From: Gammaproteobacteria bacterium
GTDB taxonomy: Bacteria > Pseudomonadota > Gammaproteobacteria > Pseudomonadales > Pseudomonadaceae
NCBI GenBank assembly: GCA_018826895.1
Contig: JAHJYA010000004.1
Coordinates: 47,442 to 111,441, forward strand
Length of the DNA: 64,000 nucleotides
Direction of reading: 5' to 3'
A program made the position numbers and the translations under genes. The notes below the pieces were generated by a model. It was not told the origin of the DNA and searched no databases. It saw only the letters and a list, made by a program, of their open reading frames with translations. Below, piece after piece: positions 36,864 to 60,190 of the stretch; position 1 is the stretch's first letter; each line of letters opens with the position of its first letter.

Positions 36864-36865
36864 GG

Positions 36866-40264: not shown

Positions 40265-40318
40265 TTGGCGAAACAAGGCTACACACCGTCAACACACCCA
40301 ACACACCTATGGGCGCAC

Positions 40319-44316: not shown

Positions 44317-44378
44317 AAAACCCCCATGCCAGCCCCAGGCGGGGCTGGCTGCGTGCTGTGCATTTACCAAACGGGCCG

Positions 44379-44624
44379 TGTGAGAGCCGCCCCGTCCGGG
44401 CCCAACCGCGCCAGGGGTGAGAGACCCGAGCGCGGCGTACAACCGTAAGCCGCTGTTTAACGACATAGCCAGAACATCAGGGAAACCCTACTATTCCAAC
44501 CGCGGCCCTCGATGCTCCCCCACAGTGCTGTGTCGGCATCGAGCGTCGTGCGCCAGTCGAAGTGTGAGAGCTTCGCCTGGCACGGCGCGGGCAACCGCGC
44601 CACCCGCCGAACCGCGTGTGAGAG
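44379..44624 (-). promoter_or_regulatory. Cluster of four hairpins with CUCUCACA loops, leader of the CII gene
   Basis: Between Cro and CII (357 bp without a gene) the minus-strand RNA has four hairpins whose loops read CUCUCACA or close: at 44617-44624 (stem CCGCG/CGCGG), 44563-44570 (CGAAG/CTTCG), 44416-44423 (GGG/CCC, loop CUCUCACC) and 44379-44386 (longer, imperfect). Stem sequences differ but the loop is kept, a sign of selection on RNA structure. A GC hairpin at 44642-44663 just after cro may be a terminator. Confidence 0.55.
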
Positions 44625-44673
44625 CGCGGCTTGGCACACCACCGGCCCTTTCGGGGGCCGGCACCTTTACAGG

Positions 44674-44934
44674 CTAAGCTGCCGTAGCAACTGGCCTGCT
44701 CAATTCGGTCTCAGGCACCCCGAAGTGCTGCAAGACCTCCATCAAAGACACACGGCCTTCGCTCTCGCGGGCCAACGCACGCAGTAAACGAAAGCGTGGC
44801 TCCTTGCGGGCGTACAGCACGTGCACCTTCATGTAGCCGATGGTCACGCCACAACGCTGCGCGTAGGCCTCAAGCGGATTACCGGTTGGCTCACGGGGCT
44901 TATCGATGTTGCGTATGTAGTCTGCAAGCTTCAT
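44674..44934 (-). CDS. Cro-like repressor (YdaS-type)
   Basis: 86 residues: MKLADYIRNIDKPREPTGNP, LEAYAQRCGVTIGYMKVHVL is the helix-turn-helix (about 21-50), with a C-terminal VSLMEVLQHFGVPETEL. Divergent from the CI-like gene with about 97 bp carrying operators between. First gene of the leftward lytic operon. Confidence 0.8.
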   Translation of the reverse strand: MKLADYIRNIDKPREPTGNPLEAYAQRCGVTIGYMKVHVLYARKEPRFRLLRALARESEGRVSLMEVLQHFGVPETELSRPVATAA

Positions 44935-44957
44935 TCAGGTCACCTCGGTCGACATAA

Positions 44958-45039
44958 TTACCGAACGGGTAACGAATGGCAATACCAATCGGCGAATTTA
45001 CCCAGCGGGTAATTAATGGCCCAATTACCGAATGAATAA
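44958..45039. promoter_or_regulatory. Three operator-like palindromes between cro and cI
   Basis: TTACCGAACGGGTAA (44958-44972) and TTACCCAGCGGGTAA (44998-45012) are inverted repeats TTACC-N5-GGTAA. A half-degenerate third, TTACCGAATGAATAA, spans 45025-45039 and covers the CI start codon at 45032. Spacing is 40 and 27 bp. The cI ATG has no clear ribosome site, so its mRNA could be leaderless as in lambda pRM. Confidence 0.75.
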
Positions 45040-45727
45040 ATACCCCAGCATCCCCGACATCAGGCACGCCAACCTGCGCAGAATCATGCAGGAGCGTGAA
45101 ATCACGCCCGCCGAACTCAGCCGCATACTTAATAAGTCACCCGGCCAGGTAGGCCAGTTCGCAGGCCCTACACGCCACAAAGGTATAGGCGACGATCCAG
45201 CCAGAGAAATTGAAGAGCTTCTCGGCCTGTCCCCCTACGAGCTGGATAACCCCGGTAGCCTTCTGGCCAAGCCAGGCGCCGTGGGTGAAGAGCCAGGCGC
45301 CTACTTCACCGACGCCACATTCCAGGCATACACCAGAGGCAAGATACCCGTTGTAGGTGTCACAGCGGCAGGAGCTGCAATGGAAGTCATTGACCTTTAC
45401 CAGCCCGGAGTGGCTGACGAATGGATAGACGCCCCAAAAAACTACACCCCTGGCTCCTTCATCCTGCGGCTCACCGGCTTCTCTATGCAGCCACGGTTCT
45501 GGAGTGAGGACAGGGTACTAATAGAGCCAGCGCTGGAGTGGAACCCAGGCGACTATGTATTCGCCAAGCGCCCAGCAAGCGGGGACGGGACCTTTAAGAA
45601 GCTGGTCGAAGAAGACGGCCGTCTATTCCTCTACGCCCTCAACCCTGAGTTCTCTCCCAGGTACATAGAGCTGACGCCCGACTGGCAAATAGTCGGCAAG
45701 GCCACCTTCAGGCTGGATAAACTCTAA
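45032..45727 (+). CDS. CI-like repressor with S24 (LexA-type) domain
   Basis: 231 residues. The N-terminal helix-turn-helix at about 14-45 (MQEREITPAELSRILNKSPG) is followed by a linker, cleavage region near VGVTAAGAAMEV, catalytic Ser in LTGFSMQPRFWSEDRV and Lys in GDYVFAKRPASGDGTFKKLV. Keeps the prophage silent and is cleaved under RecA/SOS. It heads the rightward operon that runs to int. Confidence 0.92.
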   Translation: MNKYPSIPDIRHANLRRIMQEREITPAELSRILNKSPGQVGQFAGPTRHKGIGDDPAREIEELLGLSPYELDNPGSLLAKPGAVGEEPGAYFTDATFQAYTRGKIPVVGVTAAGAAMEVIDLYQPGVADEWIDAPKNYTPGSFILRLTGFSMQPRFWSEDRVLIEPALEWNPGDYVFAKRPASGDGTFKKLVEEDGRLFLYALNPEFSPRYIELTPDWQIVGKATFRLDKL

Positions 45728-45745
45728 ATAAATACCCATAAGGTA

Positions 45746-45772
45746 TTTACAGCATTACCCGACAGCTATAGA
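45746..45772 (+). promoter_or_regulatory. Candidate rightward promoter after cI
   Basis: TTTACA (45746-45751), 15 bp, TATAGA (45767-45772). Spacing is short. ATTACCC between the elements resembles an operator half-site, so it may be CI- or Cro-controlled. A small palindrome AAATACC/GGTATTT lies at 45730-45748. Confidence 0.45.
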
Positions 45773-45809
45773 TTGATCGCGTACCCACTCTCACATCGGA
45801 GTACGCGAC

Positions 45810-45989
45810 ATGCATCAGACACAGCACACAACCCCCTGCCAGGTGCACGCGCACCCGGCACTGCAACCCCAACTGATTTTCGAGGTGCGCCGCCTGGCGC
45901 GTGACGCCGGCTGCCAGTACGTCAGCCGTGCCCACCGCCGCGCCAATGCTGCGTCCGCCCCCAGCCCGTTCGGAGGTGACGCAGCATGA
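45810..45989 (+). CDS. Small hypothetical phage protein
   Basis: 59 residues with GGAG 8 bp before the ATG: MHQTQHTTPCQVHAHPALQP, then LARDAGCQYVSRAHRRANAA. Overlaps the next gene as ATGA. A CTCTCACA leader motif lies at 45788-45795. Not recognised. Confidence 0.55.
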   Translation: MHQTQHTTPCQVHAHPALQPQLIFEVRRLARDAGCQYVSRAHRRANAASAPSPFGGDAA

Positions 45990-46282
45990 GCCGCGACCAC
46001 ATCACCATCGCCTGGCACCACTTCCTACTTGCACTTGAACACTCGCTGCGCGAGACGCGTACAGCGCTCTACGACTTCTCTGTCGAGTCCAACCGCTACC
46101 ACGCCTTGGGCATTCTCACGGGCGCCATGAATCTGGAAGCGATCGACTTCAAGCAGTACGAACGCCTGGCCGAACTGGTGAACAACGCCGCCGCCCTGCG
46201 CCGCGAAGAGCTGATCGGCAAGATGCCCCTGCACAGCCACCGTGCCCTGCTCGTACTCGCCAAAGGGGAGCGCGCAGCATGA
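45986..46282 (+). CDS. Hypothetical phage protein
   Basis: 98 residues, mostly helical: MSRDHITIAWHHFLLALEHS, ALGILTGAMNLEAIDFKQYE, LAELVNNAAALRREELI. Overlapped at both ends by neighbours (ATGA). No family recognised. Confidence 0.65.
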   Translation: MSRDHITIAWHHFLLALEHSLRETRTALYDFSVESNRYHALGILTGAMNLEAIDFKQYERLAELVNNAAALRREELIGKMPLHSHRALLVLAKGERAA

Positions 46283-46821
46283 CCTACGCACTCACAGCAG
46301 AATCTAACCTCACCCTCGGCCACGCCCTACGTGGGGACGCCACCGCTGCCACCCTCTACCTTGAGCACCCCGCACAGCTTGTACGCGTAGAGCTGGACTT
46401 CGAGCACGAGGCCGACAAGCTGGCTGTCCGCATCAACATGGAGCATTGCCGCGACACCATGCGCCTGCAGGCCGGCGACCCCGCCAACGCCCAGCACCTG
46501 CGCGAGCAGATCGAGGCCATCGCCAACGGCACGGCAGATACCGCCGCCACGGGCGCCATTGGGGCCAGCCAGGCCAAGGCCAGCGAGCCGTTTGCCCTGG
46601 GCGATCAGGACGAGTCGAGCATCCGCACCGTTGTGCGCCACGGCGGCACGCGGCACCTGTACTGCAACGCGACGGTAACCGTGCACACCTCGGCACTCAG
46701 CCAACGACTAGACGCCCTGGTCAGCACGCGCGCCGGTACCGAGCACCTGCACGCCGGCACCCCCGGCGAGCTGTACGTGGTGCTCGCCCAGCATATCGAA
46801 GCCGCCCTCAACGCAGCCTGA
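46279..46821 (+). CDS. Hypothetical phage protein
   Basis: 180 residues. N-terminal beta-like part (VRVELDFEHEADKLAVRINM), a middle Ala/Gly linker (near 90-105), and a C-terminal part with THTSALSQRLDALV-like helices. Not recognised. Frame and ATGA overlap support it as real. Confidence 0.65.
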   Translation: MTYALTAESNLTLGHALRGDATAATLYLEHPAQLVRVELDFEHEADKLAVRINMEHCRDTMRLQAGDPANAQHLREQIEAIANGTADTAATGAIGASQAKASEPFALGDQDESSIRTVVRHGGTRHLYCNATVTVHTSALSQRLDALVSTRAGTEHLHAGTPGELYVVLAQHIEAALNAA

Positions 46822-46832
46822 GGCCCGCCACC

Positions 46833-47123
46833 ATGAACCGCACCGTCAAACAGGCTGCCCAGGTCCTGGGCACCACCGAAGCCGCGCTACGCCACCACCT
46901 GCGCACCACGCATGCGCTCAACCGCGACGGCACCCTGGCGGCGCGCCACATCGGCGGCGGCAAGCTGCTCATGGACCCGCGCGTCACACAGCTTTTGCGC
47001 CCCAACCGCGCGCCCATCACCAAGCACTACGCCGTGCTGATGGTCACCGAGGCCGGCATCGACTGGCTGGCCAACCAACTGGGCATCGCCATCACCCACG
47101 TACCCAGCAAGGAAAGCGCATGA
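46833..47123 (+). CDS. Helix-turn-helix protein, possibly antirepressor-related
   Basis: 96 residues from the ATG at 46833. MNRTVKQAAQVLGTTEAALR, HHLRTTHALNRDGTLAARHI gives a helix-turn-helix. AVLMVTEAGIDWLANQLGI resembles the end of KilA-C antirepressor domains. Function inferred from these weak likenesses. Confidence 0.6.
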   Translation: MNRTVKQAAQVLGTTEAALRHHLRTTHALNRDGTLAARHIGGGKLLMDPRVTQLLRPNRAPITKHYAVLMVTEAGIDWLANQLGIAITHVPSKESA

Positions 47124-47497
47124 ACAAGCCCAACCCCATCACCGCCGCCATCGGCGTGGTCAAGCTGGCCCACATGCACCACAGCAACCCCACAGCGGTC
47201 GACGCCGCCACCGTGCGCGACGCCGCAGCCGAGTGCATCCAGCGCCTGAGCGCCCTACCGGCCGAAGCACTGGAGCTGGCCGCGCTCTATGCCGCCCTGC
47301 TGGCCGTCACCCCGGCGGGCTGGCTGCCCTACGTCACCCTCACCGGCATCACCGCGCGCCCTTTCGGCACGGTAATCACCGACGAGGCCGGGAACATCGC
47401 CATGACCGCCACCGGGCAGAGCACCGAAAGCCTCACCGCATTCATCGCCCAAAAGCTCAGCCGCCCCATGGCGGGGTGCGGGGAGGCCACTCAGTGA
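47120..47497 (+). CDS. Hypothetical phage protein
   Basis: 125 residues: helical AATVRDAAAECIQRLSALPA, then a beta-like part FGTVITDEAGNIAMTATGQS. Overlaps its neighbours at both ends. Not recognised. Confidence 0.62.
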   Translation: MNKPNPITAAIGVVKLAHMHHSNPTAVDAATVRDAAAECIQRLSALPAEALELAALYAALLAVTPAGWLPYVTLTGITARPFGTVITDEAGNIAMTATGQSTESLTAFIAQKLSRPMAGCGEATQ

Positions 47498-47730
47498 CAA
47501 CGCTCGAACTGCTCCAAGAGCGCTGGAAGGCCAACAGCCTCCCGCTCACCACCGTGCGCGAGCAGTACTTCGCCCACATCAAAACGGACAAACGCCTGCG
47601 CGCCCTCATCCGCGCGCAGGAGGTAAAGCTGCCCACCTTCAAACACTCCAACTCGCGGCTGGCGCCGCTTTATGTGCGCCTTTCCGACTTGGCCGAGTAC
47701 CTGGACACCTGCGCCGCGGCTGCCGCGTAA
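47494..47730 (+). CDS. PrtN-family (pyocin activator) regulator
   Basis: 78 residues from a GTG at 47494 that overlaps the previous stop as GTGA, with GGAGG 7 bp upstream. LELLQERWKANSLPLTTVRE, QYFAHI, LRALIRAQEVKLPTFKH, then APLYVRLSDLAEYLDTC match the layout of PrtN, the SOS-induced pyocin activator of P. aeruginosa. Here it probably acts within the phage. Confidence 0.72.
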   Translation: MTTLELLQERWKANSLPLTTVREQYFAHIKTDKRLRALIRAQEVKLPTFKHSNSRLAPLYVRLSDLAEYLDTCAAAAA

Positions 47731-47853
47731 AGCAGCCAACCAACACGGAGGATTGGCAGCCATGTAACAGAACCAGCAAACCTCAGCCCATCAGAAGCGC
47801 CCCCAAAGGGGCGCTTCACCGGACTCTCACCCGAACCACATGAGACACAGCAC

Positions 47854-48195
47854 ATGAGCAAACGCCCCTTCATGGACACCCTGCGCGAGATCGAGATGGG
47901 TGGCCTGCTGGACGAATTGACCGACGCCCAGCACAACCTCATCGACCTGATACGCCTTACCAACAAGGCCGGCGCACTGACCATCACCCTCAACTACAAG
48001 CCCGAGGGTGCCGGCCAGATCACCGTCAAGGCCGAGGTGAAGGCCAAAGAGCCGAAGCTGCCGCGTGGTAGCTCCCTGTTCTTCCTCACCCCCGAGGGCA
48101 ACCTCAGCCGCCGCGACCCACGCCAGCAACAGATGGACTTGCGCCCTGTGGGCAACGAAGAAAACCCAGGCGAACTGCGCAAGGTCGCCGACTAA
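47854..48195 (+). CDS. Conserved hypothetical phage protein
   Basis: 113 residues: MSKRPFMDTLREIEMGGLLD, LIRLTNKAGALTITLNYKPE, then VKAEVKAKEPKLPRGSSLFF. Occurs next to DUF2303-type genes in several phages as I recall. A CTCTCACC leader motif is 23 bp upstream, with a GCGCCCCC/GGGGCGC hairpin around 47796. Function unknown. Confidence 0.7.
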   Translation: MSKRPFMDTLREIEMGGLLDELTDAQHNLIDLIRLTNKAGALTITLNYKPEGAGQITVKAEVKAKEPKLPRGSSLFFLTPEGNLSRRDPRQQQMDLRPVGNEENPGELRKVAD

Positions 48196-48228
48196 ACCTC
48201 TCTCACAACCGCTCACAGGAGCACCCCG

Positions 48229-49050
48229 ATGAAAGAAGCAATCGACCAGCTGGTCGCCCTCGCCCAGGGCCTCGGCAAACCCTTCAACATTGAGCAGATC
48301 AAGGCCCCGATGGCTTTGGTACCGCAAGGCCTCGACCTGCAAGTGCTCGAGCAGCACCTGCCTGCCCCCACTCGCACCAAGCAAAACCTGACGGTGCTGG
48401 ATGCAGCGACCTTTATCGAATACGTGAAGCGCTTCACCACCAACGCCACCGTAGTGTTCTGCAACGGCCCCAACGGCCGCACCTTCCGTGCAGTGTTCGA
48501 CTATCACCAGCCAGACCAGCCGGCCTGGGGCTCGCACTCTGCCTCCTACGCCTGCCCGCTCACCGTCGAGTGGGGCAACTGGAAGGCCACAGACCGCAAG
48601 CGCCTAAGCCAGGCCGACTTCGCGGAGTTCATTGAGGACAACGTGAAGGACGTGGTGACCAACGAGCAGACCCCGGGCGCACCAAGCGCCGCCGACATGC
48701 TGGAGATCAGCCGCACTCTGCAGGCGCAGAAGAACATCACCTTCCGCCAGGGCACCCGCCTCGAAAACGGCCAGGTGCAGCTGACCTACAACGAGGAGAT
48801 CGACGGCCGCGCCGGTGAGGCTGGCCAGCTGCGCATCCCCGAGCAGTTCTACATCGGCGTGAAGCCTTTCATCGGTGGCGAAGCCTTCCTGGTTACCGCC
48901 CGCTTCCGCTACCGAATCGTCGAGGGCCGCCTGCAGGTTTGGTACGAACTGGTGCGCCCGGACAAGGTGCTCGAGGAAGCCTACGAGGCGGTACGCAAGA
49001 CCATCAGCGCCGGCATCGGCGAAGTACCGATGTACGAAGCAACTCTCTAA
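48229..49050 (+). CDS. DUF2303 (YfdQ-like) phage protein
   Basis: 273 residues: AIDQLVALAQGLGKPFNIEQ, ATFIEYVKRFTTNATVVFCN, FRAVFDYHQPDQPAWGSHSA, WGNWKATDRKRLSQADFAEF match DUF2303. Biochemical role unknown; linked by context to phage recombination or DNA metabolism genes. AGGAG precedes the ATG and a CTCTCACA motif lies at 48200-48207. Confidence 0.85.
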   Translation: MKEAIDQLVALAQGLGKPFNIEQIKAPMALVPQGLDLQVLEQHLPAPTRTKQNLTVLDAATFIEYVKRFTTNATVVFCNGPNGRTFRAVFDYHQPDQPAWGSHSASYACPLTVEWGNWKATDRKRLSQADFAEFIEDNVKDVVTNEQTPGAPSAADMLEISRTLQAQKNITFRQGTRLENGQVQLTYNEEIDGRAGEAGQLRIPEQFYIGVKPFIGGEAFLVTARFRYRIVEGRLQVWYELVRPDKVLEEAYEAVRKTISAGIGEVPMYEATL

Positions 49051-49060
49051 TACCCAACCA

Positions 49061-49098
49061 CCCGCCGCCGGGCTCTCACATCAACACCCGGCGGCGGG
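49061..49098 (+). promoter_or_regulatory. 12-bp hairpin with a CUCUCACA-containing loop
   Basis: CCCGCCGCCGGG (49061-49072) and CCCGGCGGCGGG (49087-49098) pair perfectly around a 14-nt loop that starts with CTCTCACA (49073-49080). Just after the DUF2303 stop and 20 bp before the next ATG. Not followed by a T tract, so not a standard terminator. Confidence 0.65.
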
Positions 49099-49118
49099 CC
49101 AACAACAGGACACAGCAC

Positions 49119-49904
49119 ATGACCATCACACTCACCACCGTAGCCATCATCGCCGCGGTCATCATCATCGCCCTACTCGGCCTGGCTTGGCTCGCCTGCA
49201 TGGGCGCAATGCGGGCACGCACCAACGGCTATGACCAGGGCTACAGCGACGCCAAGCGCAGCTACAGCACAGAAATCAGCCGCCTCGAGGAGCAAAGCAA
49301 CCGCGCTTCTGCCCGCCTGCACCAGGCCCAGCGCGACCGCGAAACCATCCTCCAAGACGCCGACCGCCGCCTGGCCACCTACGCCGGCCGCACATACCTC
49401 CACACAGACCTCGCCACCCTGCACCGCGCCGCAAAACAGCTAATCGCCGCCGGCACCACCTTTAACAACCTCAACCACTTGTGCGTCGTCAACCTCACCG
49501 ACCAAGCTCGCTTTGTGGTCGACGTCGCGGGCGAGCTGCAGCAGGTGATCAAACGCGTTGAGCCGCACTTCCAGGGCGCCAAGCCGGTACCCGCAACCGA
49601 AGCCGAGGCAGCAACCCTTGAAGCCGCCGCATGGGCCGACACCGGCGCCAACGGCAAAAGCTGGCTTGTATACGGCCCCGAGGGTTGCGGCAAAACCCGC
49701 GACGCCGGCGTCATCGCCCAAGCCCTGGGCCTCACAGAGATCGTTGATAACTGGCACCCCGGCCAGCCGGTACCGCGCACCAAGGCGCTTGTGCTCACCA
49801 ACGTGCCAGGCCCGCATGACGCCTTCAACCGCCGCGAGCTCAGCTACACCCAAGCCATGAGCCTCGTCGCCGCCAAGGGCACCGCGCAGGGGGATGCAGC
49901 ATGA
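49119..49904 (+). CDS. Membrane-anchored protein with P-loop
   Basis: 261 residues from the ATG at 49119. One N-terminal membrane helix (VAIIAAVIIIALLGLAWLAC, about 8-27), a coiled coil (about 45-75), and a Walker A motif VYGPEGCGKT (near 188-197) close to the C-terminus. Only about 65 residues follow the P-loop (LVLTNVPGPHDAFNRRELSY), so a full ATPase fold is doubtful. Function unknown. Confidence 0.65.
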   Translation: MTITLTTVAIIAAVIIIALLGLAWLACMGAMRARTNGYDQGYSDAKRSYSTEISRLEEQSNRASARLHQAQRDRETILQDADRRLATYAGRTYLHTDLATLHRAAKQLIAAGTTFNNLNHLCVVNLTDQARFVVDVAGELQQVIKRVEPHFQGAKPVPATEAEAATLEAAAWADTGANGKSWLVYGPEGCGKTRDAGVIAQALGLTEIVDNWHPGQPVPRTKALVLTNVPGPHDAFNRRELSYTQAMSLVAAKGTAQGDAA

Positions 49905-50980
49905 TCAACGCCACCCACTACGTGCTCGACCTCGAAACCATGGGCAACCGCCCGGGTGCCGCCATCGTCGCCATTGGCTGCGTCCGGGTAGACCACCTTG
50001 AGCTCTCCGGTCGTTTCTACCGCCGCGTTTCGCTCGAATCATCCCTGCAGGCCGGGCTCACTTGCGACCCCAGCACCATTTTATGGTGGCTTGGCCAAAG
50101 TGACGCCGCGCGCGCAGAAATCACCGCCCCCGGCGCAATGATGCTGAGCAGCGCCCTGCAGGACCTGGTTGCATTCATGGGCTGCAAACTCAATGGCCCA
50201 CCCGACCGCAACGCCTTGGTGTGGGGCAACGGCAGCAGCTTCGACAACGTCATCATCGGCAATGCCTTCGACGCGTGCGGCATCAAGCGCCCCTGGATGT
50301 TCTGGAATGACCGCGACCTGCGCACCCTGCTGGCCCTCTACCCAGCAGCCAAAACCACGCCATTCGAGGGCACCAAACACCACGCCATGTTCGATGCCGT
50401 GCACGAAGCCCAACAGCTGACCTACGCACTGCGTGAGCATCAGGAATTCACCAAGGGCTTCGTACCCGCAACCCTCGACGCCACCACCGAAAGCCCGGAC
50501 CTGCGCTCAGCCCTGGCCGAAGTTACTGAGTGCCTGCAGCTCGCCCTAACCGGCGGCCAAGTACCCGCCGCGCGCGCCGGCCGCGCACTGCTCACCTCCG
50601 GTGAGCTGCTCGGCATCAGCCAGCCAAACGAAACAGCCTTGGCAACACAACCCATGCCTGTCGAGCGGGACGAGCTTGGGCAGTGGACACACCCTGCCTG
50701 GCCTGATGACGGCGAAGAATGTGCCATACCCAAAGGCTGGTTCGCAGAACAAGGCCTCGAAGTATTCATCCTGGAGTTCGAAACCGACGCCCCCGAAGAA
50801 CTCGCAAACGCCTACTTCGAGCAGGGCAACCCCGACTTCAGCACCTGGGAACCAAGCACGCCGATTGGCAAAGGCTGGTTCGTCTTCTCAATCCACGACA
50901 CCGAAGACGGTCCCGTATGCGTCTGGGTGCGCCAGGTACAGCCCGACGAACAGGAGTGCACCAACCATGCCGCAATCTGA
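49901..50980 (+). CDS. DEDDh 3'-5' exonuclease-like protein
   Basis: 359 residues. YVLDLETMGNRPGAAIVAIG carries the first Asp/Glu pair (about 7-26), ALVWGNGSSFDNVIIGNAF the second Asp region, and HHAMFDAVHEAQQL the His...Asp (about 167-180). Family: Rv2179c-like 3'-5' exonucleases. The C-terminal ~130 residues (DELGQWTHPAWPDDGEECAI) are an extra domain. ATGA overlap with the gene before. Confidence 0.8.
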   Translation: MINATHYVLDLETMGNRPGAAIVAIGCVRVDHLELSGRFYRRVSLESSLQAGLTCDPSTILWWLGQSDAARAEITAPGAMMLSSALQDLVAFMGCKLNGPPDRNALVWGNGSSFDNVIIGNAFDACGIKRPWMFWNDRDLRTLLALYPAAKTTPFEGTKHHAMFDAVHEAQQLTYALREHQEFTKGFVPATLDATTESPDLRSALAEVTECLQLALTGGQVPAARAGRALLTSGELLGISQPNETALATQPMPVERDELGQWTHPAWPDDGEECAIPKGWFAEQGLEVFILEFETDAPEELANAYFEQGNPDFSTWEPSTPIGKGWFVFSIHDTEDGPVCVWVRQVQPDEQECTNHAAI

Positions 50981-51275
50981 AACCTGCCTGCGCCAGAAGC
51001 GCGCCACTCCCCTGCAAAACGTCATCGCCACCAGCGGTAACTCCTTCGTGTGCGTGGGCTACAACCACCCCGCTGACCGCTCAGTACCCGGCGACCGCTT
51101 CTGTCATTGCTGGAAGAACAGCGCTGTAGACGAGCACGGTCATTGGGATCGGCGCGACATCATTGACACCCTGTCAGTGATGGCTACCGCCCTGAGCATC
51201 GACGTGAATATTCAGGTCGCCGAAGGCATGACCGATGACGACATGAACCAAGCCGACCTGACGGTGACCCCATGA
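50967..51275 (+). CDS. Hypothetical phage protein
   Basis: 102 residues from the ATG at 50967, overlapping the exonuclease end by 14 bp: MPQSETCLRQKRATPLQNVI, NHPADRSVPGDRFCHCWKNS, then DIIDTLSVMATALSIDVNI. A few Cys and His may bind metal. Not recognised. Confidence 0.55.
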   Translation: MPQSETCLRQKRATPLQNVIATSGNSFVCVGYNHPADRSVPGDRFCHCWKNSAVDEHGHWDRRDIIDTLSVMATALSIDVNIQVAEGMTDDDMNQADLTVTP

Positions 51276-51973
51276 CCTGGATACTTACTAACTCCGCCCG
51301 CGCGTTCGACCTGCTCAACCCGCGCGCCGAAGACGTCACCACCACCGATATCGCCCACGCCCTGAGCCTGGTCTGCCGCTTCAACGGCCACTGCGCGCAC
51401 CACTACTCGGTAGCCCAGCACAGCCTGCTGGTCGCCTACATCATCGAGAAAGAGGGCGGCACGCCCGAGGAGCAACTGGCCGGGCTACTGCACGACGGCA
51501 CCGAGGCCTATATCAGCGACCTGACGCGCCCGCTCAAGCTGCTGCTCATTGAGGCCGCACGACAACGAGAAATCGCATGGCTTGAGATCGTTGCGCATTA
51601 CAGCAGCACAGCCAGCAACGTGATCAGCATCGGCGCAGCAGCCACGCGCATCCTCAGCACCTCAGAGCGGGAAGGGTTGAGCCTCCTGCTGGACGTCTAC
51701 CAGCAGATAGACGAACGCATCTGGCTGGCCATCGCCGAGCACTTCCACTTGGCAGCCGTACTGCCGGCATGCGTCAAGCACGCAGACATGATCGCCCTGG
51801 CCACTGAAAAGCGCGATCTCCTGCCCCAGCACCCTGCTGTGTGGGAATGCCTCGAAGGCTACGCCCCGCTGCCTCAGCGGATAGAGAAGTGCCCGCACGA
51901 GATCATCCGCCAACAGTTCCACGACCGGCTGCTGGGCCTACTTGCAACTACCAACCGCCGCCGCGCCGCCTAA
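51272..51973 (+). CDS. HD-domain phosphohydrolase
   Basis: 233 residues. FNGHCAHHYSVAQHSLLVAY (His of the first motif) and LLHDGTEAYISDLTRPLK give the HD metal site (about 35-55, 72-89), like YfbR-type nucleotidases. Probably acts on nucleotides to tune pools during infection. Overlaps the gene before and precedes the DGR targets. Confidence 0.8.
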   Translation: MTWILTNSARAFDLLNPRAEDVTTTDIAHALSLVCRFNGHCAHHYSVAQHSLLVAYIIEKEGGTPEEQLAGLLHDGTEAYISDLTRPLKLLLIEAARQREIAWLEIVAHYSSTASNVISIGAAATRILSTSEREGLSLLLDVYQQIDERIWLAIAEHFHLAAVLPACVKHADMIALATEKRDLLPQHPAVWECLEGYAPLPQRIEKCPHEIIRQQFHDRLLGLLATTNRRRAA

Positions 51974-51999
51974 CTCATTTCAAATTCGAGGACATCACA

Positions 52000-52611
52000 A
52001 TGAACACAATCGCCAAGAACAACCTCCCTGCCATCGGCAGCCCGCTCGCAGGCGGCTTCTATATGGGCCTGTACCTGCTCGACGGCCTGCTGCAGGCACT
52101 GATCCGCGCACCCGCCGCCACCGGCTTCAACGCACCGCAGCCATGGGGCGCACGCGGCACCAAGATCGAAGGTGCCGGCAGCTTCAATGATGGCCTGGCC
52201 AACACCCGTGCCATGGCAGAAGCCGGCTGTCCGCATGCCAACTGGGCGTTGGGCCTGTCGATTGACGGCCATCAGGATTGGTTCATCTCAGCCCGCGACG
52301 AAGCCGAGATCGTTTACCGCGTCTGCAAGCCTACCGACCAAGAGAACTGGTGCAGCTTCCGCGATGGCGACAACCCTAGCAGCGTTCCGGCCGGCTACCC
52401 GTACACAGCGCAGACCCCCTCGCAGAGCAGCATCGAGGCTTTCTGCCTGGGTGGCGAAGAAGCGCTTGAAGATCGCAGCTACTGGACCAGTACGCAGGAC
52501 GGCCCGGGCCTCGCGTGGATCCAGCACTTCGACGTTGGCAGCCAGATCAACGACGGCAAGGACAACGCCCGGCCCGCTTTCGCCGTCCGCAGAATCACCG
52601 TCACCCCTTAA
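52000..52611 (+). CDS. DGR target protein 1 (DUF1566-like variable protein)
   Basis: 203 residues. Start MNTIAKNNLPAIGSPLAGGF with GAGG 8 bp upstream. The C-terminal ~90 residues are DUF1566/C-type-lectin-like (RSYWTSTQDGPGLAWIQHFD, ending ARPAFAVRRITVTP) and carry VR1. Paralogue of the next target: both have PAIG...GG.Y.G, DGLANT and the same end. The variable residues lie in the putative ligand face. What it binds is unknown; it is far from the tail fibre genes. Confidence 0.88.
   Translation: MNTIAKNNLPAIGSPLAGGFYMGLYLLDGLLQALIRAPAATGFNAPQPWGARGTKIEGAGSFNDGLANTRAMAEAGCPHANWALGLSIDGHQDWFISARDEAEIVYRVCKPTDQENWCSFRDGDNPSSVPAGYPYTAQTPSQSSIEAFCLGGEEALEDRSYWTSTQDGPGLAWIQHFDVGSQINDGKDNARPAFAVRRITVTP
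52493..52596 (+). repeat. DGR variable repeat 1 (VR1)
   Basis: 104-bp gap-free copy of the template repeat at 53883-53986. By eye 11 differences: 10 at template adenines (changed to G 5, T 3, C 2), plus one C-to-A at the 3' IMH end (52593), shared with VR2. Confidence 0.92.
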
Positions 52612-52630
52612 CCACTTTCAGGCTTCACCG

Positions 52631-52649
52631 CCGCGCGCGTAGCGCGCGG
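52631..52649 (+). other. GC-rich hairpin after VR1
   Basis: CCGCGCGC-GTA-GCGCGCGG, 8-bp perfect stem, 34 bp after VR1. DGR targets of the BPP-1 kind carry a similar hairpin/cruciform needed for efficient retrohoming. Confidence 0.7.
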
Positions 52650-52676
52650 TCGGCTCCAAATTTTGAGGACATGACC

Positions 52677-53300
52677 ATGCAACAGATCACCCTGGAAGTC
52701 GGCAAAACAACCATCACCACCCAGAACGCCATGCTGGCGCGCCAAGTGCTCGAGCAGGAAACCGGCCTGTCGAGGGCTGTCGCCACGCTGATCCCCGGCG
52801 AACTGACCAGCACGCTGTGCCCGCCCGCCATCGGCCAGCACTGGCACGGCCAGGGCGGCACCTATGTCGGCGTGATGCGCGGCGTAAATGGCCAGGCGGA
52901 TTACCACCTGGTTGCACCGAAGCACGCGCAGATCGCTGAAATCACCTACGGCCCACGCGGTAAAAACATCGATGCCGCGAGCTGCGCACGTGACGGCCTG
53001 GCCAACACCGGTGCACTCCTCGCATCCGGTACTGAGCACCCCGCAGCGCAATGGGCGGCAGACCAAGAGGCAGAGGGCCACCGCGACTTTTACCTCCCAT
53101 CCCGCGCAGAGGCGTATCTCTGCTGGGCCAACATCCCCGAGCAGTTCGCCGACAAGGGCTGGTGGCTGACCAGTACGCAGCACGGCCCGGACAACGCCTG
53201 GTTCCAGTACTTCGACGGTGGCTTCCAGTACTACGACGGCAAGGTCAACGCCCGGCCCGCTTTCGCCGTCCGCAGAATCCTTATCCCTTCATCACTTTAA
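52677..53300 (+). CDS. DGR target protein 2 (DUF1566-like variable protein)
   Basis: 207 residues. The ATG at 52677 keeps the same GAGG-N8 spacing as target 1; an ATG at 52671 is too close. MQQITLEVGKTTITTQNAML, then GGTYVGVMRGVNGQADYHLV and DGLANTGALLASGTEH. The C-terminal lectin-like part (WWLTSTQHGPDNAWFQYFDG) ends ARPAFAVRRIL and carries VR2. Same intergenic layout as target 1, including the hairpin after it. Confidence 0.88.
   Translation: MQQITLEVGKTTITTQNAMLARQVLEQETGLSRAVATLIPGELTSTLCPPAIGQHWHGQGGTYVGVMRGVNGQADYHLVAPKHAQIAEITYGPRGKNIDAASCARDGLANTGALLASGTEHPAAQWAADQEAEGHRDFYLPSRAEAYLCWANIPEQFADKGWWLTSTQHGPDNAWFQYFDGGFQYYDGKVNARPAFAVRRILIPSSL
53176..53279 (+). repeat. DGR variable repeat 2 (VR2)
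   Basis: 104 bp, gap-free against the template repeat. By eye 13 differences: 11 at template adenines (T 7, G 3, C 1), one G-to-C at a third codon position (53198, Ala kept), and the shared C-to-A at the IMH end (53276). Confidence 0.92.
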
Positions 53301-53311
53301 GCCTTTAACCT

Positions 53312-53330
53312 CCGCGCGCGCAGCGCGCGG
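53312..53330 (+). other. GC-rich hairpin after VR2
   Basis: CCGCGCGC-GCA-GCGCGCGG, same 8-bp stem as after VR1, 32 bp after VR2. No such hairpin follows the template repeat. Confidence 0.7.
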
Positions 53331-53347
53331 TTAGCGAGTTTTCCAGC

Positions 53348-53710
53348 ATGGCCATAGCCCAACACCTGCCGATCTACAAACAAGCTGGCGCCCTCGCCAA
53401 GCTCGTGGCGGACCTTGTTAAAAACTGGCGGCGCGACTTCAAGCGCACCCTCGGTGACAAGGTACTCAACGAGTGCTTAGACGTATCGATCCTGATTTTT
53501 CGCGCCAACACCGCGAGCGGTCAGCAGCGAGTCGACTTCATTCAGCAAACCCTGGAACGCATCCAGATTGTTGAGCTGATGCTTCGCCTCGCCGCTGACC
53601 TGATGCTGGTTACCCCTGAGCAACACGGTACCGCCATCAAGATCACCGACGACATAGGCCGGCAGGCCACTGGGTGGAAAAGAAATGCCGCCGCATCGCC
53701 AGCTGTATGA
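53348..53710 (+). CDS. avd: DGR accessory variability determinant Avd
   Basis: 120 residues, almost all helical: MAIAQHLPIYKQAGALAKLV, WRRDFKRTLGDKVLNECLDV, RVDFIQQTLERIQIVELMLR. It fits Avd, a pentameric four-helix bundle that binds the DGR reverse transcriptase and template RNA. It sits between the targets and the template, the usual place. Confidence 0.88.
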   Translation: MAIAQHLPIYKQAGALAKLVADLVKNWRRDFKRTLGDKVLNECLDVSILIFRANTASGQQRVDFIQQTLERIQIVELMLRLAADLMLVTPEQHGTAIKITDDIGRQATGWKRNAAASPAV

Positions 53711-53882
53711 GCGCCACGGCCCTCATACCAGAGCGATATTGATTCTGGTCGTGCCGCTGGCTCACAAGGCCACCGCTATGCGCACCAGGGGAACCACCAG
53801 GCAACGGCCTGGCAGGCCTCGCGCAGTTTCGCCGCTGATCAGCCTCGGCCTTCGGCAGCGCGACGTAGATAGCACGACCTGG

Positions 53883-53986
53883 CGCAGAACGGCCCGAACA
53901 ACGCGTGGATCCAGAACTTCGACGATGGCAACCAGAACAACGACGACAAGGACAACGCCCGGCCCGCTTTCGCCGTCCGCAGCATC
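53883..53986 (+). repeat. DGR template repeat (TR)
   Basis: Adenine-rich template in the gap between avd and the reverse transcriptase (53711-54032). Read in the target frame it has eight AAC codons (for example in QNGPNNAWIQNFDDGNQ), the signature of adenine mutagenesis that allows many residues without stops. Ends AGCATC where the VRs have AGAATC. The rest of the gap is probably the spacer of the template RNA. Confidence 0.92.
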
Positions 53987-54032
53987 GAACGGTATTACAG
54001 GCGGCCATGCTGGTTTTTCTATTGAGCAACTC

Positions 54033-55103
54033 ATGCGGGCCTACTACGACTGCCGCCGCAGCAAGCGCGGCAGCCGCTCAGCCCTTGCATTCGAGTTCCA
54101 CCTGGAGCGCAACATCATGCAACTCCTAAGCGACCTGAACAGCGGCGCCTATCAGCCAGGCCCCTCGATCTGCTTCGTGGTCACACACCCGAAGCCGCGC
54201 GAAGTGTGGGCCGCTGATTTCCGCGACCGCATCGTGCACCACATGCTGTACAACCACATCGGCGCCCGCATAGAGCGCAGCTTTATCGCCGACTCCTGCG
54301 CCTGCATCGAAGGGCGCGGCACCCTGTACGCCGCCCAGCGCCTGGAGAAAAAAGTGCGCAGCATCACCCAGAACTGGAGCCAACCAGCGCACTACCTCAA
54401 GTGCGACTTGGCCAACTTCTTCGTCAGCATCGATAAGCACATACTCGCCCAGCAACTGACCACCCGCATACCCGAGGCCAACTGGCGAGCCCTGGCGCTG
54501 CTGATCCTCTGGCACGACCCGCGCGACAACTACCAGCTGCGCAGCTCACCGCGCCTGCTCAACCGAGTCCCGCAGCACAAGCGCCTGACCTGCCAGCCAG
54601 CGCACCTCGGCCTGCCGATCGGCAACCTCAGCAGTCAGTTCTTTGCCAACGTCTACCTGGATGCACTGGACCAGTTCGCCAAGCACACCCTGCAGGCCAA
54701 GCACTACATCCGATATGTGGATGACTTCGTGCTGCTGCACCAAAGCCCGCAACAGCTCAACACCTGGCACAAGCAGATCGAAGCATTCCTGGCCGACCGC
54801 CTGCACGCCCGCCTCAACACCAGCAAAACCATCCTGCAGCCAGTCAACCGCGGCGTGGACTTCGTAGGCCAGGTCATCAAACCCTGGCACCGCACCACCC
54901 GCCGAAAAACCGTTGCTCACGCCATCAAGCGCATCAGCTCAGTACCGCTTCCTGCGTTGCGTGAAACCGCCAACAGCTACTTCGGCCTGCTCACCCAAGC
55001 CACCCACAGCCACACCGACCGCCGCAAAGTGGCCAAGGCCATCCTGCTGCGCGGTAAAGCGGTGAATGCAGGGCTGACCAAGACGTATAAGGGGGCCTCA
55101 TGA
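54033..55103 (+). CDS. DGR reverse transcriptase
   Basis: 356 residues from the ATG at 54033. ATT codons upstream in frame could add IEQL, which may belong to the domain. RT motifs: KCDLANFFVSIDKHILAQQL (about 123-142), IGNLSSQFFANVYLDALD (about 196-213, with the DGR-type SQ), YIRYVDDFVLLH (about 225-236, catalytic YVDD), and VDFVGQVIK. Copies the template RNA with adenine errors for retrohoming into the VRs. No maturase or endonuclease domain is present. Confidence 0.93.
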   Translation: MRAYYDCRRSKRGSRSALAFEFHLERNIMQLLSDLNSGAYQPGPSICFVVTHPKPREVWAADFRDRIVHHMLYNHIGARIERSFIADSCACIEGRGTLYAAQRLEKKVRSITQNWSQPAHYLKCDLANFFVSIDKHILAQQLTTRIPEANWRALALLILWHDPRDNYQLRSSPRLLNRVPQHKRLTCQPAHLGLPIGNLSSQFFANVYLDALDQFAKHTLQAKHYIRYVDDFVLLHQSPQQLNTWHKQIEAFLADRLHARLNTSKTILQPVNRGVDFVGQVIKPWHRTTRRKTVAHAIKRISSVPLPALRETANSYFGLLTQATHSHTDRRKVAKAILLRGKAVNAGLTKTYKGAS

Positions 55104-55501
55104 CCCTGACCACCCCCGTAAGCACCTCAACCCTAACCGGCATCGCCCTGGCCCATGCCATTGGGCAGGCGATGAAGCTCCCCCTCGTGATCCTGCCAAG
55201 CGAATACGCTAGCGGACCGCGGCTGTTCATCAAAGACAGCTACGGACTACGAAGCTTTCGCCCTGATAAAGACCCATCTTTAGCCTGGTCGCTCTTCTGT
55301 CGTTATGGCCAGGAAGCGCGCCTCGAGCTGCAGTTCCACAACAATGCTGCCAGTTGCCTACAGGCCGGCATCCGCACCGGCCACACCGCCAACCGCATGC
55401 TCACCGCCGCGCTGCGCGCACTGGTGACGCACCTGCACGGCCAGGCAATCGAAATCCCCGCAGTACTGCTCGAACCGGAGCAGCAGGATGGTGCAGCATG
55501 A
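55100..55501 (+). CDS. Hypothetical phage protein (DUF2591-like)
   Basis: 133 residues: TGIALAHAIGQAMKLPLVIL, SLAWSLFCRYGQEARLELQF, then TAALRALVTHLHGQAIEIPA. The sandwich-like pattern resembles phage ABA-sandwich (DUF2591) proteins. ATGA overlaps with the reverse transcriptase and the methyltransferase. Function unknown. Confidence 0.62.
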   Translation: MTLTTPVSTSTLTGIALAHAIGQAMKLPLVILPSEYASGPRLFIKDSYGLRSFRPDKDPSLAWSLFCRYGQEARLELQFHNNAASCLQAGIRTGHTANRMLTAALRALVTHLHGQAIEIPAVLLEPEQQDGAA

Positions 55502-56619
55502 GCCGACTACTGATCCCAATCGGCTCAACGGCCCATCCGGTGGCGGAAATTCGTATCGGCGACTGCATCAGCGAGATGCAGAAACTTGAGGCCAACTCGG
55601 TTCACTGCTGCGTGACTAGCCCGCCCTACTACGGTCTCCGGGATTATGGCGTAGACGGCCAGATCGGTCTGGAAGAAACGCCGGCCGAGTTCATTGCCCG
55701 GCTGGTTGCGGTGTTCGAGGAAGTGCGCCGGGTGTTGCGCGATGACGGCACCGCCTGGGTGAACATGGGCGACAGCTATGCCAGCGGCGGTATGGGCGGC
55801 GGTGGCTCCTACATGGCCGAGCGCGGTGACGCCGCATGGCAAGGAAAAGGCAATGCTACTGGCTGGCGATCAGCCCCTGCAGGTCTCAAGAATAAAGACT
55901 TGATGGGCATGCCCTGGCGGTTGGCTTTTGCCCTACAGGACGCTGGCTGGTACCTGCGCCAGGACATCATCTGGAATAAGCAGAATCCTATGCCAGAGAG
56001 CGTGCGCGACCGCTGTACCAAGTCGCACGAATACATCTTCCTGCTCAGCAAAAAGCGCAAGTACTACTTCGACCAGCAGGCCATCCTCGAAACCTGCTCG
56101 CCTAACACCCACGCCCGACTTGCGCAGGATGTAGCTGCCCAAGTCGGCAGTGAGCGTGCCAATGGCGGGACCAAGACAAACGGCAATATGAAAGCAGTGG
56201 CCAGGAAGACCAATGGCGTTGGCTGGGGTCACGGTACCGACAAGGAAGAACGCAAACGGGGCCGGGTAAAGGACAACGATTCGATGGACTCGGCCCTAGC
56301 CATCATGCCGCTGGAGCGCAACAAGCGCAGCGTCTGGACGGTACCGACTCACAGCTTCAAGGGCGCCCACTTCGCCACCTTCCCACCTGACCTGATCCGG
56401 CCTTGCATCCTGGCAGGCTCACCCCGGGGCGGCATCGTGCTCGACCCGTTCGGCGGTGCATGCACCACGGGGCTGGTAGCAATGCAGGAAGGGCGAAGGG
56501 CGATCCTGACAGAACTGAATCCTGAATACGCTGCTCTTGGCCATCAACGACTTCTGGCCGCATGGCGCGATGGCGCAGCGCAGATGGACATCTTGCTTGA
56601 TGGGAGTACCGCAGCATGA
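55498..56619 (+). CDS. Site-specific DNA methyltransferase (N4/N6 type)
   Basis: 373 residues from the ATG at 55498. Catalytic motif IV TSPPYYGLRDYG (about 40-51) comes first and the SAM-binding LDPFGGACTTGLVAMQEGRR (about 317-336) late, the beta-class order. SPPY fits N4-cytosine or N6-adenine methylation. No restriction partner is near, so it is probably antirestriction. Second methylase of the prophage besides the Dam-type one. Confidence 0.88.
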   Translation: MSRLLIPIGSTAHPVAEIRIGDCISEMQKLEANSVHCCVTSPPYYGLRDYGVDGQIGLEETPAEFIARLVAVFEEVRRVLRDDGTAWVNMGDSYASGGMGGGGSYMAERGDAAWQGKGNATGWRSAPAGLKNKDLMGMPWRLAFALQDAGWYLRQDIIWNKQNPMPESVRDRCTKSHEYIFLLSKKRKYYFDQQAILETCSPNTHARLAQDVAAQVGSERANGGTKTNGNMKAVARKTNGVGWGHGTDKEERKRGRVKDNDSMDSALAIMPLERNKRSVWTVPTHSFKGAHFATFPPDLIRPCILAGSPRGGIVLDPFGGACTTGLVAMQEGRRAILTELNPEYAALGHQRLLAAWRDGAAQMDILLDGSTAA

Positions 56620-57083
56620 GCCGCCGCAAACCCAACAGCGCCCACGCCCGCATGGTGCGCTACGCACGCGCCATGCTGCGCACCAACCATATTGCAGTGC
56701 TCGACATCGAGGCCACCGAACTGCACACCATCATCAACTGGCAGAACGGCACGCTGATCAGCACCCAGTCGCGCCGCGCGCTGGTCGATTGCCTGTGTGA
56801 CATCCCCCACCAGTGGACGATCTACCTCGCCGCCCTGCACCGCGTAGCGCCTGGGGACACCTACATCAAAAGCGAGGAGCTGGCACTCGACGGCAACTAC
56901 ATGGCCGCCACCCTCGAGGACGTGATCGAACCCCGCGCCGAGGCACTGCGCGCCAGCTGCAACCCGGCGCACTTTATGGGCATGGCCTGGCTGGCCATCC
57001 CCTACGACGCAACCCTCACCGAAGCCCACGCCGCAACGCTGTTCGAGGCCTTCGGCGCCTGGCAGACAACGGAGGCCGCATGA
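56616..57083 (+). CDS. Hypothetical phage protein
   Basis: 155 residues: MSRRKPNSAHARMVRYARAM, HIAVLDIEATELHTIINWQN, YLAALHRVAPGDTYIKSEEL. Not recognised. ATGA overlaps at both ends show it is part of the same operon as the methyltransferase and the excisionase. Confidence 0.65.
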   Translation: MSRRKPNSAHARMVRYARAMLRTNHIAVLDIEATELHTIINWQNGTLISTQSRRALVDCLCDIPHQWTIYLAALHRVAPGDTYIKSEELALDGNYMAATLEDVIEPRAEALRASCNPAHFMGMAWLAIPYDATLTEAHAATLFEAFGAWQTTEAA

Positions 57084-57244
57084 CAGCCCTACGCCGCATC
57101 ACAACCCCCAACGGCGCACCGCTGCAGCACCTCAACCTGCCCAGCATCTGCGACCAGTGCAACCGCGCACGCTCACACGGCAACCACCAGCGCCGCTCAA
57201 AGCAGCGCCAGGCGGCGAAACAACGCGAGAGGGAGGCCCCATGA
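57080..57244 (+). CDS. Small phage protein with CxxC
   Basis: 54 residues from the ATG at 57080: MTALRRITTPNGAPLQHLNL, then CDQCNRAR and a basic tail. Overlaps its neighbours by 4 bp each. Too short for a functional call. Confidence 0.5.
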   Translation: MTALRRITTPNGAPLQHLNLPSICDQCNRARSHGNHQRRSKQRQAAKQREREAP

Positions 57245-57422
57245 ATACAGCCGAAATCCTGCCCTTTGAGCCCGACAAAGTGGAAGAGCGGGCGATGGCA
57301 GAGCACCTGCGCCTAACCTTTCGCGCCCTGCAAACACGCCGCCTAAAGGGCAAAATCCCCCACGGCGTGTGGAACAAGGTCAATGGCGACATCATTTACA
57401 GCAAGAGAAGGTACGACGAATG

Positions 57423-60190
<2,768 letters not shown>

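What the first reader, a model, noticed from the sequence alone, without database searches (positions are those of the whole stretch)
52000..55103. Complete prophage-borne diversity-generating retroelement with two target genes
Order: target 1 (VR1), target 2 (VR2), avd, TR, reverse transcriptase. VR and TR are each 104 bp and align without gaps. All parts are open and look active. A single TR serving two adjacent paralogous targets would let one element diversify two binding proteins.
Basis: partly seen in the sequence, partly recalled or inferred. Interest (0 to 1): 0.95.

Follow-up and report, generated by a model that had tools for sequence, protein, structure and literature searches.

The report
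Two-target diversifying retroelement with flipped RNA
A virus integrated in what is probably a Pseudomonas genome carries a complete gene-diversifying element whose single template is predicted to be copied with errors into two neighbouring genes, and its conserved structured RNA lies on the opposite side of the template from the textbook case, which likely points to a different way of starting the copying.

Summary
In detail: 52000-55103 holds a complete diversity-generating retroelement (DGR). VR1 differs from TR at 11 of 104 positions (10 at TR adenines), VR2 at 13 (11 at adenines). In relative L009 the TR is identical, while VR1 differs at 14 of 29 TR-A sites and 0 of 75 others. The two-target layout is common: 129 of 137 TR-bearing sequences have both. 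DGRs with two VRs, one in Pseudomonas fluorescens, are already in print (PMC3521204, passages).

Of 27 loci picked only by RT-15, 27 carry this avd and RT and 26 a TR with VRs. In BPP-1 the structured RNA lies 3' of TR. Here the 150 nt after TR show no conserved structure, and RT translation most likely starts inside TR. In annotated relatives the cassette sits in the integrase/early module, not among tail genes.

I read it as a new architectural variant of a known kind. Priming, activity and the targets' ligands are untested.

The parts
52000..52611 (+). Target 1 gene (203 aa), VR at its 3' end; C-type-lectin-like (Lcl_C / DUF1566) C-terminus
   Evidence: ORF; Lcl_C E 0.0016, below the curated cut-off; phrog_4245 E 4e-25; Lcl_C in 30 of 32 members of alignment A2, best 1e-12; profile A2 hits solved structure HbP1 at 1e-10
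52493..52596 (+). VR1
   Evidence: 11 of 104 mismatches to TR, 10 at TR adenines
52631..52649 (+). 8-bp GC inverted repeat, 34 nt after VR1
   Evidence: absent after TR in the window
52677..53300 (+). Target 2 gene (207 aa), VR at its 3' end
   Evidence: ORF; phrog_4245 E 9e-26; Lcl_C only E 0.061 for the window protein, but 30 of 34 members of alignment A3 match, best 3e-11
53176..53279 (+). VR2
   Evidence: 13 of 104 mismatches to TR, 11 at TR adenines
53312..53330 (+). 8-bp GC inverted repeat, 32 nt after VR2
53348..53710 (+). avd (120 aa)
   Evidence: phrog_3206 'Avd protein of DGR' E 7e-25; Pfam bAvd E 1.6e-8 (35.4 of 40 bits); NCBIfam Avd E 3e-11 (43 of 80 bits)
53694..53884 (+). RT-15 RNA (RF03018): structured RNA filling the avd-TR gap; likely the 5' part of the template RNA
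   Evidence: 172.3 bits against a gathering score of 82, model positions 1-192; covariation z -11.2, 31 of 45 pairs with compensatory changes
53883..53986 (+). TR (template repeat); its 3' part also codes, in another frame, for the likely RT N-terminus
53925..55103 (+). Reverse transcriptase; likely start ATG 53925 inside TR (392 aa); YVDD and LGLPIGNLSS motifs read in the translation
   Evidence: phrog_1423 E 1e-110; PF00078 57.7 bits against 29.6; 8ub7 E 1.6e-37; start
12567..58598 (.). Likely extent of the prophage, by a 12-bp direct repeat (AAATTGGTACAA) at both ends
   Evidence: head, portal, terminase, tape-measure, primase, repressor and integrase genes inside

Best explanation
This is a complete diversity-generating retroelement in a prophage, in which one template repeat is predicted to be reverse-transcribed with errors at adenines and pasted into two adjacent paralogous genes, and in which the conserved structured RNA (RT-15) lies 5' of the template. 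Shown by sequence: the parts, the adenine bias of both VRs, VR turnover with an unchanged TR among relatives, the linkage of RT-15 to this element, the covarying fold of RT-15, and the lack of a comparable conserved fold in the 150 nt after TR. Inferred: (1) RT-15 and TR form one template RNA, and RT-15 recruits the RT-Avd complex, as the 3' spacer does in BPP-1; (2) cDNA synthesis starts at the TR 3' end with that end brought back to the 5' RNA, an order like msr-msd-RT of retrons; (3) RT translation begins at an ATG inside TR, so one RNA is both template and message; (4) the cDNA replaces VR1 or VR2, guided by the shared 3' end and helped by the hairpins behind each VR; (5) the targets are small soluble C-type-lectin-like proteins made from the early, integrase-side operon, so they more likely bind a variable ligand inside the lysogen or the newly infected cell (a host or rival-phage protein) than a cell-surface receptor. 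Step 5 is the weakest (about 0.35); the DGR assignment is about 0.97, steps 1 and 3 about 0.7, step 2 about 0.4.
For: Adenine bias in the window. L009: TR 0/104 different, VR1 14/29 TR-A sites against 0/75 others, VR2 17/29 against 1/75; L080 and L082: TR 0/104 different while the RT is 24% diverged. L028 against L125: 19 differences over 3229 bp, all in VR2 at TR-A sites. RT, Avd and target families. RT-15: 172 bits; in 13 of 13 small loci scanned, its end within 6 nt of the TR start; in 3 of 3 phages, 2 more and L201. Over the cut-off in 27 of 398 Pseudomonadaceae genomes and 0 of 14 controls; all 27 fetched loci over the cut-off carry this avd and RT, 26 of 27 carry TR with VRs; the three sub-cut-off loci carry neither. 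Fold: RT-15 z -11.2; TR 0.3; after TR 0.5; two RT stretches 0.1 and -0.1; avd 0.2. BPP-1: TR 0 nt from avd, 144 nt before brt, Rfam Phage_DGR RNA in that spacer. Start in TR: 106 of 136 sequences have no ATG/GTG/TTG between TR end and the conserved RT block; 40 of these also have an RT-frame stop inside TR, and all 40 have an ATG in TR. Early position.
Against: No experiment, and no time series for this window. Thirty of 136 sequences do have a canonical start between TR and the RT block, and 4 of 136 have no ATG in TR; no good ribosome site was seen before the TR ATG in the window (by eye). No covarying pairing between RT-15 and TR or the stretch after it was found, so step 2 lacks direct support. 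A perfect stem of 7 bp or more follows only 36 of 130 VR1 and 86 of 135 VR2 (background 82 of 2900). Fourteen of 128 target-2 and 5 of 129 target-1 proteins have a hydrophobic 19-residue stretch above 1.6, and no signal-peptide predictor was run. The relative L010 shows 9/75 and 10/75 non-A changes in its VRs, with a TR 10% different. Structure prediction never finished.
Confidence: 0.85

Rival explanations
1. An ordinary BPP-1-type DGR: the recruiting and priming RNA is a 3' spacer as in BPP-1, only hidden inside the start of the RT gene; RT-15 is an accessory.
For: BPP-1 works with a 3' spacer (PMC12875486, passages seen; layout). Seven of nine other phage DGRs fetched have 135-320 nt between TR and RT homology.
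Against: The 150 nt after TR show no conserved fold (z 0.5, 0 pairs) and synonymous sites there are no more constrained than in the rest of the RT gene. Only about 25 nt separate TR from RT homology in the window. Rfam Phage_DGR (RF03022) does not match the window stretch even at E 10.
Confidence: 0.12
2. RT-15 is a cis-regulator (leader or attenuator) that controls RT translation and is not part of the template machinery.
For: It lies directly before the likely RT start; Rfam types it only as 'Gene; sRNA' and gives no function.
Against: It abuts TR, starts inside the end of avd, and is more conserved than avd or RT (8% against 22% and 24% different in L080). A leader would not explain the missing 3' spacer.
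Confidence: 0.18
3. The targets are tropism determinants (virion receptor-binding proteins), as Mtd is in BPP-1.
For: Most viral targets of DGR clades 1, 4 and 6 are tail proteins (PMC8144416, passages seen); the targets have a C-type-lectin-like C-terminus, as Mtd does (Mtd fold recalled).
Against: In the window the cassette is on the opposite strand from the head and tail genes, next to the integrase. In Haboob, Magia and Cruim01 it is with integrase, RecT/Bet or exonuclease and repressor, away from tail genes. In 112 loci with at least 4 kb after TR, five integrase queries hit 50 and five tail queries none (few queries, diverse phages).
Confidence: 0.2
4. VR1, VR2 and TR are only old duplicates that drifted; the element is dead.
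For: No direct activity data.
Against: Adenine bias in the window and in relatives; open RT, avd and targets.
Confidence: 0.03

Closest known systems
Two-VR DGR of Pseudomonas fluorescens WH6 and other multi-VR DGRs (PMC3521204, passages seen)
   Same: One TR, two paralogous targets in a pseudomonad; [quoted passage not shown]
   Different: The passages seen mention no structured RNA 5' of TR. That WH6 belongs to the same lineage is likely but was not tested.
BPP-1 DGR (NC_005357)
   Same: VR-avd-TR-RT order, adenine-specific VR changes, Avd, RT, GC hairpin behind VR (PMC3240598, passages seen).
   Different: BPP-1: one target, a tail protein; TR abuts avd; 144-nt spacer with Phage_DGR RNA (RF03022) 3' of TR. 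Here: two targets outside the tail region, 172 nt with RT-15 5' of TR, no 3' spacer.
Phages LPPA56, Haboob, phPA-G, Cruim01, SC_8_H2H8_2017, Magia, QDWS
   Same: RT 63-75% identical; RT-15 found in the six of these seven that were scanned; Magia annotates two 'lectin fold' proteins as possible DGR targets, Cruim01 annotates RT-15 beside the RT.
   Different: Nothing essential: these are members of the same lineage. Their records do not join RT-15, TR and targets into one element. SC_8_H2H8_2017 was not scanned for RT-15.
[quoted passage not shown]
   Same: One TR, two targets, both with a C-type lectin domain.
   Different: There one VR is near the 5' end of its gene and the targets are different protein types; here both are small paralogues with 3' VRs.
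Retrons (recalled; one passage of PMC8867640 seen)
   Same: Order structured RNA, template, RT.
   Different: No VR, no adenine mutagenesis, no Avd in retrons; the RT model scores far below the retron cut-off.

Membership tests
Diversity-generating retroelement | TR/VR pair with substitutions concentrated at TR adenines | tested here: met
   10 of 11 and 11 of 13 mismatches; pooled over relatives 3835 of 4082 in 294 pairs, but those pairs had been kept only if at least 60% of mismatches were at A
Diversity-generating retroelement | RT of DGR type | tested here: met
   8ub7 at 1.6e-37, far ahead of group II and other retron-type RTs; same length as BPP-1 brt; that 8ub7 is bRT is recalled; no RT tree was built
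Diversity-generating retroelement | Avd accessory protein | tested here: met
   phrog_3206 Avd E 7e-25; Pfam and NCBIfam Avd models match below their curated cut-offs
Diversity-generating retroelement | Shared 3' end of TR and VR with a small fixed difference (IMH against IMH*) | tested here: met
   GC-rich identical 3' end, with the same C/A difference in both VRs
Diversity-generating retroelement | Hairpin behind VR and not behind TR | tested here: met
   8-bp stems after VR1 and VR2, none after TR in the window; in the family 36 of 130 VR1, 86 of 135 VR2, 2 of 136 TR
Diversity-generating retroelement | Mutagenic retrohoming observed in cells | not testable with these tools
   -
RT-15 RNA family (RF03018) | Covariance-model score over the gathering cut-off | tested here: met
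   172.3 against 82 bits, full length
BPP-1-type DGR RNA (RF03022 Phage_DGR, 3' of TR) | Match to RF03022 between TR and RT | tested here: not met
   no match at E up to 10, while BPP-1 itself matches with 104.7 bits
Retron | Retron RT and msr/msd RNA | tested here: not met
   retron St85 RT model 50.7 of 235 bits; no retron RNA family in the window stretch 30000-64000
Group II intron RT | RT/maturase model over its cut-off | tested here: not met
   82.3 of 300 bits
C-type-lectin-fold variable proteins (target fold) | C-type lectin fold carrying the VR | tested here: inconclusive
   Lcl_C below cut-off for the window's own proteins but found in 30 of 32 and 30 of 34 aligned relatives; structure prediction failed

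The most novel reading that the evidence does not exclude
The orphan RNA family RT-15 is the 5' half of a DGR template RNA. In this lineage of temperate phages the template RNA is built the other way round from BPP-1: the structured recruiting and priming part comes first, the template second, and the RT gene begins inside the template, a retron-like order. This machine diversifies two or three early, non-virion binding proteins, an intracellular repertoire rather than a tropism switch.
Probability: 0.4. Interest if true: 0.8.

Novelty: new variant of a known kind. Interest (0 to 1): 0.55.

Why it matters
DGR mechanics have been worked out on BPP-1 with its 3' spacer RNA. A lineage with the structured RNA on the other side of TR, no 3' spacer and the RT start inside the template would show that the priming arrangement is not fixed, would give a likely function to an Rfam family whose description names none, and could bridge DGRs and retrons. 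The targets lie in the early operon of temperate phages and are kept as a pair in most relatives, which makes a long-open question testable: what do phages diversify when it is not the tail?

Tried and rejected
Hidden 3' spacer RNA in the RT gene: tested by synonymous-site conservation and by alignment folding with column-shuffled controls; no support. Long-range tether between RT-15 and TR or the stretch after it: no covarying helix; complementary but invariant stretches exist and say nothing. Third target in the window: third targets of relatives hit only targets 1 and 2 and TR in the window. Other RTs in the genome: only this one at the RVT_1 model. RF03022 in 398 Pseudomonadaceae genomes: none, but nothing rang in the controls either, so this is not proof of absence. 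Papers naming RT-15: none in the library; 'diversity-generating retroelement' with 'Rfam' listed four papers, seen as a listing only; the paper recalled as the source of the RT-N families is not held. So no fold search was made.

Dropped rows: 8 of 145 sequences gave no TR/VR pair (L038, L050, L064, L070, L071, L072, L105, L113); several are truncated or only partly matching. L104 has TR and VRs but no RT anchor and was left out. Targets were sorted by distance from TR only; L020 and L067 show that some 'third' VRs are neighbours of the pair. L118 against L120 shows two VR differences, neither at a TR adenine. L028 may be an assembly chimera of two prophages (L125, L145) of one genome, so one search is a snapshot, not a time series.
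Full report
1. The observation. TR 53883-53986 matches VR1 52493-52596 (11 of 104 mismatches, 10 at TR adenines, p 7e-6) and VR2 53176-53279 (13, 11 at adenines, p 8e-6) without gaps. Beyond the adenines there is one C/A difference shared by both VRs near the 3' end, as expected of an IMH/IMH* pair (recalled), and one further change in VR2. An 8-bp GC inverted repeat follows each VR by 34 and 32 nt and does not follow TR; in BPP-1 such a hairpin helps target recognition (PMC3240598, passages seen). No further copy lies elsewhere in the genome, which is 88% complete in 136 contigs.

2. The proteins. The RT matches PHROG and Pfam RT families; among solved structures the best match by far is a 328-residue RT (8ub7), the length of BPP-1 brt. 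Avd is recognised by phrog_3206 (E 7e-25); Pfam and NCBIfam Avd models match below their cut-offs. The targets, 203 and 207 aa, match the end of phrog_4245. Lcl_C is weak in the window proteins (E 0.0016 and 0.061, below cut-off) but found in 30 of 32 members of alignment A2 (mostly target 1, six target 2) and 30 of 34 of A3 (target 2). Profiles of both hit HbP1 (8q4e) at 1e-10 and 9e-10. By hydropathy the window's targets have no membrane stretch (maxima 1.28 and 1.10); 5 of 129 target-1 and 14 of 128 target-2 relatives exceed 1.6. A signal-peptide predictor was not available.

3. Relatives. RT searches gave 64 genome loci and the best 80 of 212 viral loci. Of these 144 plus the window, 137 show TR/VR pairs under my filter (length 50 or more, at least 60% of mismatches at A). 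By distance classes, 129 of 137 have both targets, 25 of them with a third VR further upstream. Target 1 and target 2 are separate stable lineages: the best hit in another locus is of the same class for 119 of 129 and 122 of 127.

4. Signs of activity. Nine relatives were compared region by region. L009: TR identical; VR1 differs at 14 of 29 TR-A sites and 0 of 75 others, VR2 at 17 of 29 and 1 of 75, while the rest of the targets differ by 10%. L080 and L082: TR identical although the RT is 24% different. L010, with a TR 10% different, shows 9 and 10 of 75 non-A changes, so the purity fades with distance. L028 against L125: 19 differences over 3229 bp, all in VR2 at TR-A sites; L028 against L145: 13 in VR1 at TR-A sites and 8 elsewhere; L028 may be a chimeric contig. 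Of 130 VR1, 118 are distinct; of 135 VR2, 125; identical pairs share 99.8-100% identical flanks. So the lineage diversifies both VRs; for the window this is inferred.

5. The RNA. Rfam RT-15 (RF03018) covers 53694-53884, full length, 172.3 bits against 82. It begins in the last codons of avd and ends at the first bases of TR. It was found in 13 of 13 small loci scanned, its end 0-6 nt from the TR start, in LPPA56, Haboob and Magia, Cruim01 and phPA-G and QDWS. To test the link the other way round, RT-15 was searched without the RT: over the cut-off in 27 of 398 Pseudomonadaceae genomes and 0 of 14 controls. All 27 fetched loci over the cut-off carry this avd and RT and 26 carry a TR with VRs beginning at the RNA's end; the exception, L172, is a cut contig. 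Three sub-cut-off loci have none of it. Some of these genomes also gave loci to the RT search, so the sets overlap. In samples of the phylum and class RT-15 is rare (3 of 398 and 1 of 369, own genome included), and the one new locus, L192, again carries avd, RT and all-A TR/VR pairs.

6. Fold. On 39 diverse sequences (of 136) RNAalifold gives RT-15 45 pairs, 31 with compensatory changes, z -11.2 against column shuffles; TR, the 150 nt after TR, two RT stretches and an avd stretch give z between -0.1 and 0.5. The alignment tool agrees: 29 of 49 pairs with changes on both sides. Synonymous sites just after TR are not unusually conserved. No covarying tether links RT-15 to TR.

7. The mirror image. 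In BPP-1 TR touches avd and 144 nt separate it from brt; Rfam Phage_DGR RNA sits in that spacer. PMC12875486 (passages seen) states that this spacer recruits bRT-Avd and primes cDNA from an internal adenine. Seven of nine other phage DGRs fetched have the same layout: 135-320 nt between TR and RT homology and, in the six with an annotated avd, 8-34 nt between avd and TR. BalMu-1 has another Rfam RNA, RT-14, in its 3' spacer. In the window 172 nt lie before TR and about 25 nt between TR and RT homology; QDWS is alike (162 and 9). Bacteroides phage F2 has 128 and 39 nt and no Rfam match, so the flipped layout is not confined to RT-15 carriers.

8. The RT start. Eight RT residues upstream of the window's ATG 54032 are conserved as protein with free synonymous codons (leucine in 124 of 125 with six codons), so translation starts earlier. 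In 106 of 136 sequences no ATG, GTG or TTG lies between TR and that block; in 40 of these an RT-frame stop inside TR leaves only TR, and all 40 have an ATG there (22 distinct TR ends). Overall 132 of 136 have an ATG in TR. Thirty of 136 have a possible start after TR, mostly TTG. A TR overlapping an RT end is known as a class (PMC3521204, passages seen). Non-canonical starts are not excluded.

9. Place in the phage. Head, portal, terminase, tape-measure and primase genes lie on the minus strand at 24-43 kb; repressor, exonuclease, phosphatase, DGR, methyltransferase and integrase on the plus strand at 45-58.6 kb. A 12-bp repeat at 12567 and 58587 may mark the ends. The flanking host genes look like lptF and pepA (recalled, by eye). 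In Haboob, Magia and Cruim01 the cassette is also in the integrase-recombination-repressor module, away from tail genes. Hence the reading that the targets are not virion receptors, which is inference.

10. Known or new. Two-target and TR-overlapping DGRs are in print, one two-VR case in P. fluorescens (PMC3521204; PMC10743442 gives about 13% of DGRs with two targets; passages seen). Not found in my searches (one open library, main source paper not held): the assignment of RT-15 to the DGR template RNA. The Cruim01 record lists RT-15 beside its RT, so the neighbourhood has been seen by annotators. I file it as a new variant of a known kind.

Noticed in passing
L189 (Medea1) 6767-8586; L191 (Aurca01) 6204-8023; L156 (Cruim01): Two phages keep both targets, with VRs differing from Cruim01's TR only or almost only at adenines (Aurca01 14 of 14 and 16 of 16; Medea1 18 of 18 and 12 of 14), but show no avd or RT in the fetched stretches (no RT-15 in Medea1; Aurca01 not scanned). 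After target 2 comes an unrelated gene, HNH/NUMOD4-like by eye in Medea1. Neither record is among the nine with an RT of at least 60% identity. Aurca01 is 99.9% identical to Cruim01 over 6.2 kb on one side. Recent loss, or diversification in trans by a co-resident DGR phage.
   Followed up: partly
L198 2292-2435: Rfam RT-14 RNA (RF02921) sits in the 3' spacer between TR and RT of the Bacillus phage BalMu-1 DGR: a second RT-N family that is likely a DGR RNA.
   Followed up: no
L200 (Bacteroides phage F2) 2226-2461: A 128-nt gap between avd and TR and only 39 nt from TR to RT homology: the same flipped layout without an Rfam match.
   Followed up: no
25 of 137 TR-bearing sequences; also Cruim01 (L156): A third VR, in most cases 3-8 kb upstream on the same strand in another small target paralogue.
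   Followed up: partly
window 12567-12578 and 58587-58598: A 12-bp direct repeat that may be the attachment core; the second copy lies in the 3' end of the integrase gene.
   Followed up: partly
L125 and L145: Two prophages with the same IMG genome number carry nearly the same cassette with different VR1 and VR2, all 32 VR differences at TR adenines.
   Followed up: partly
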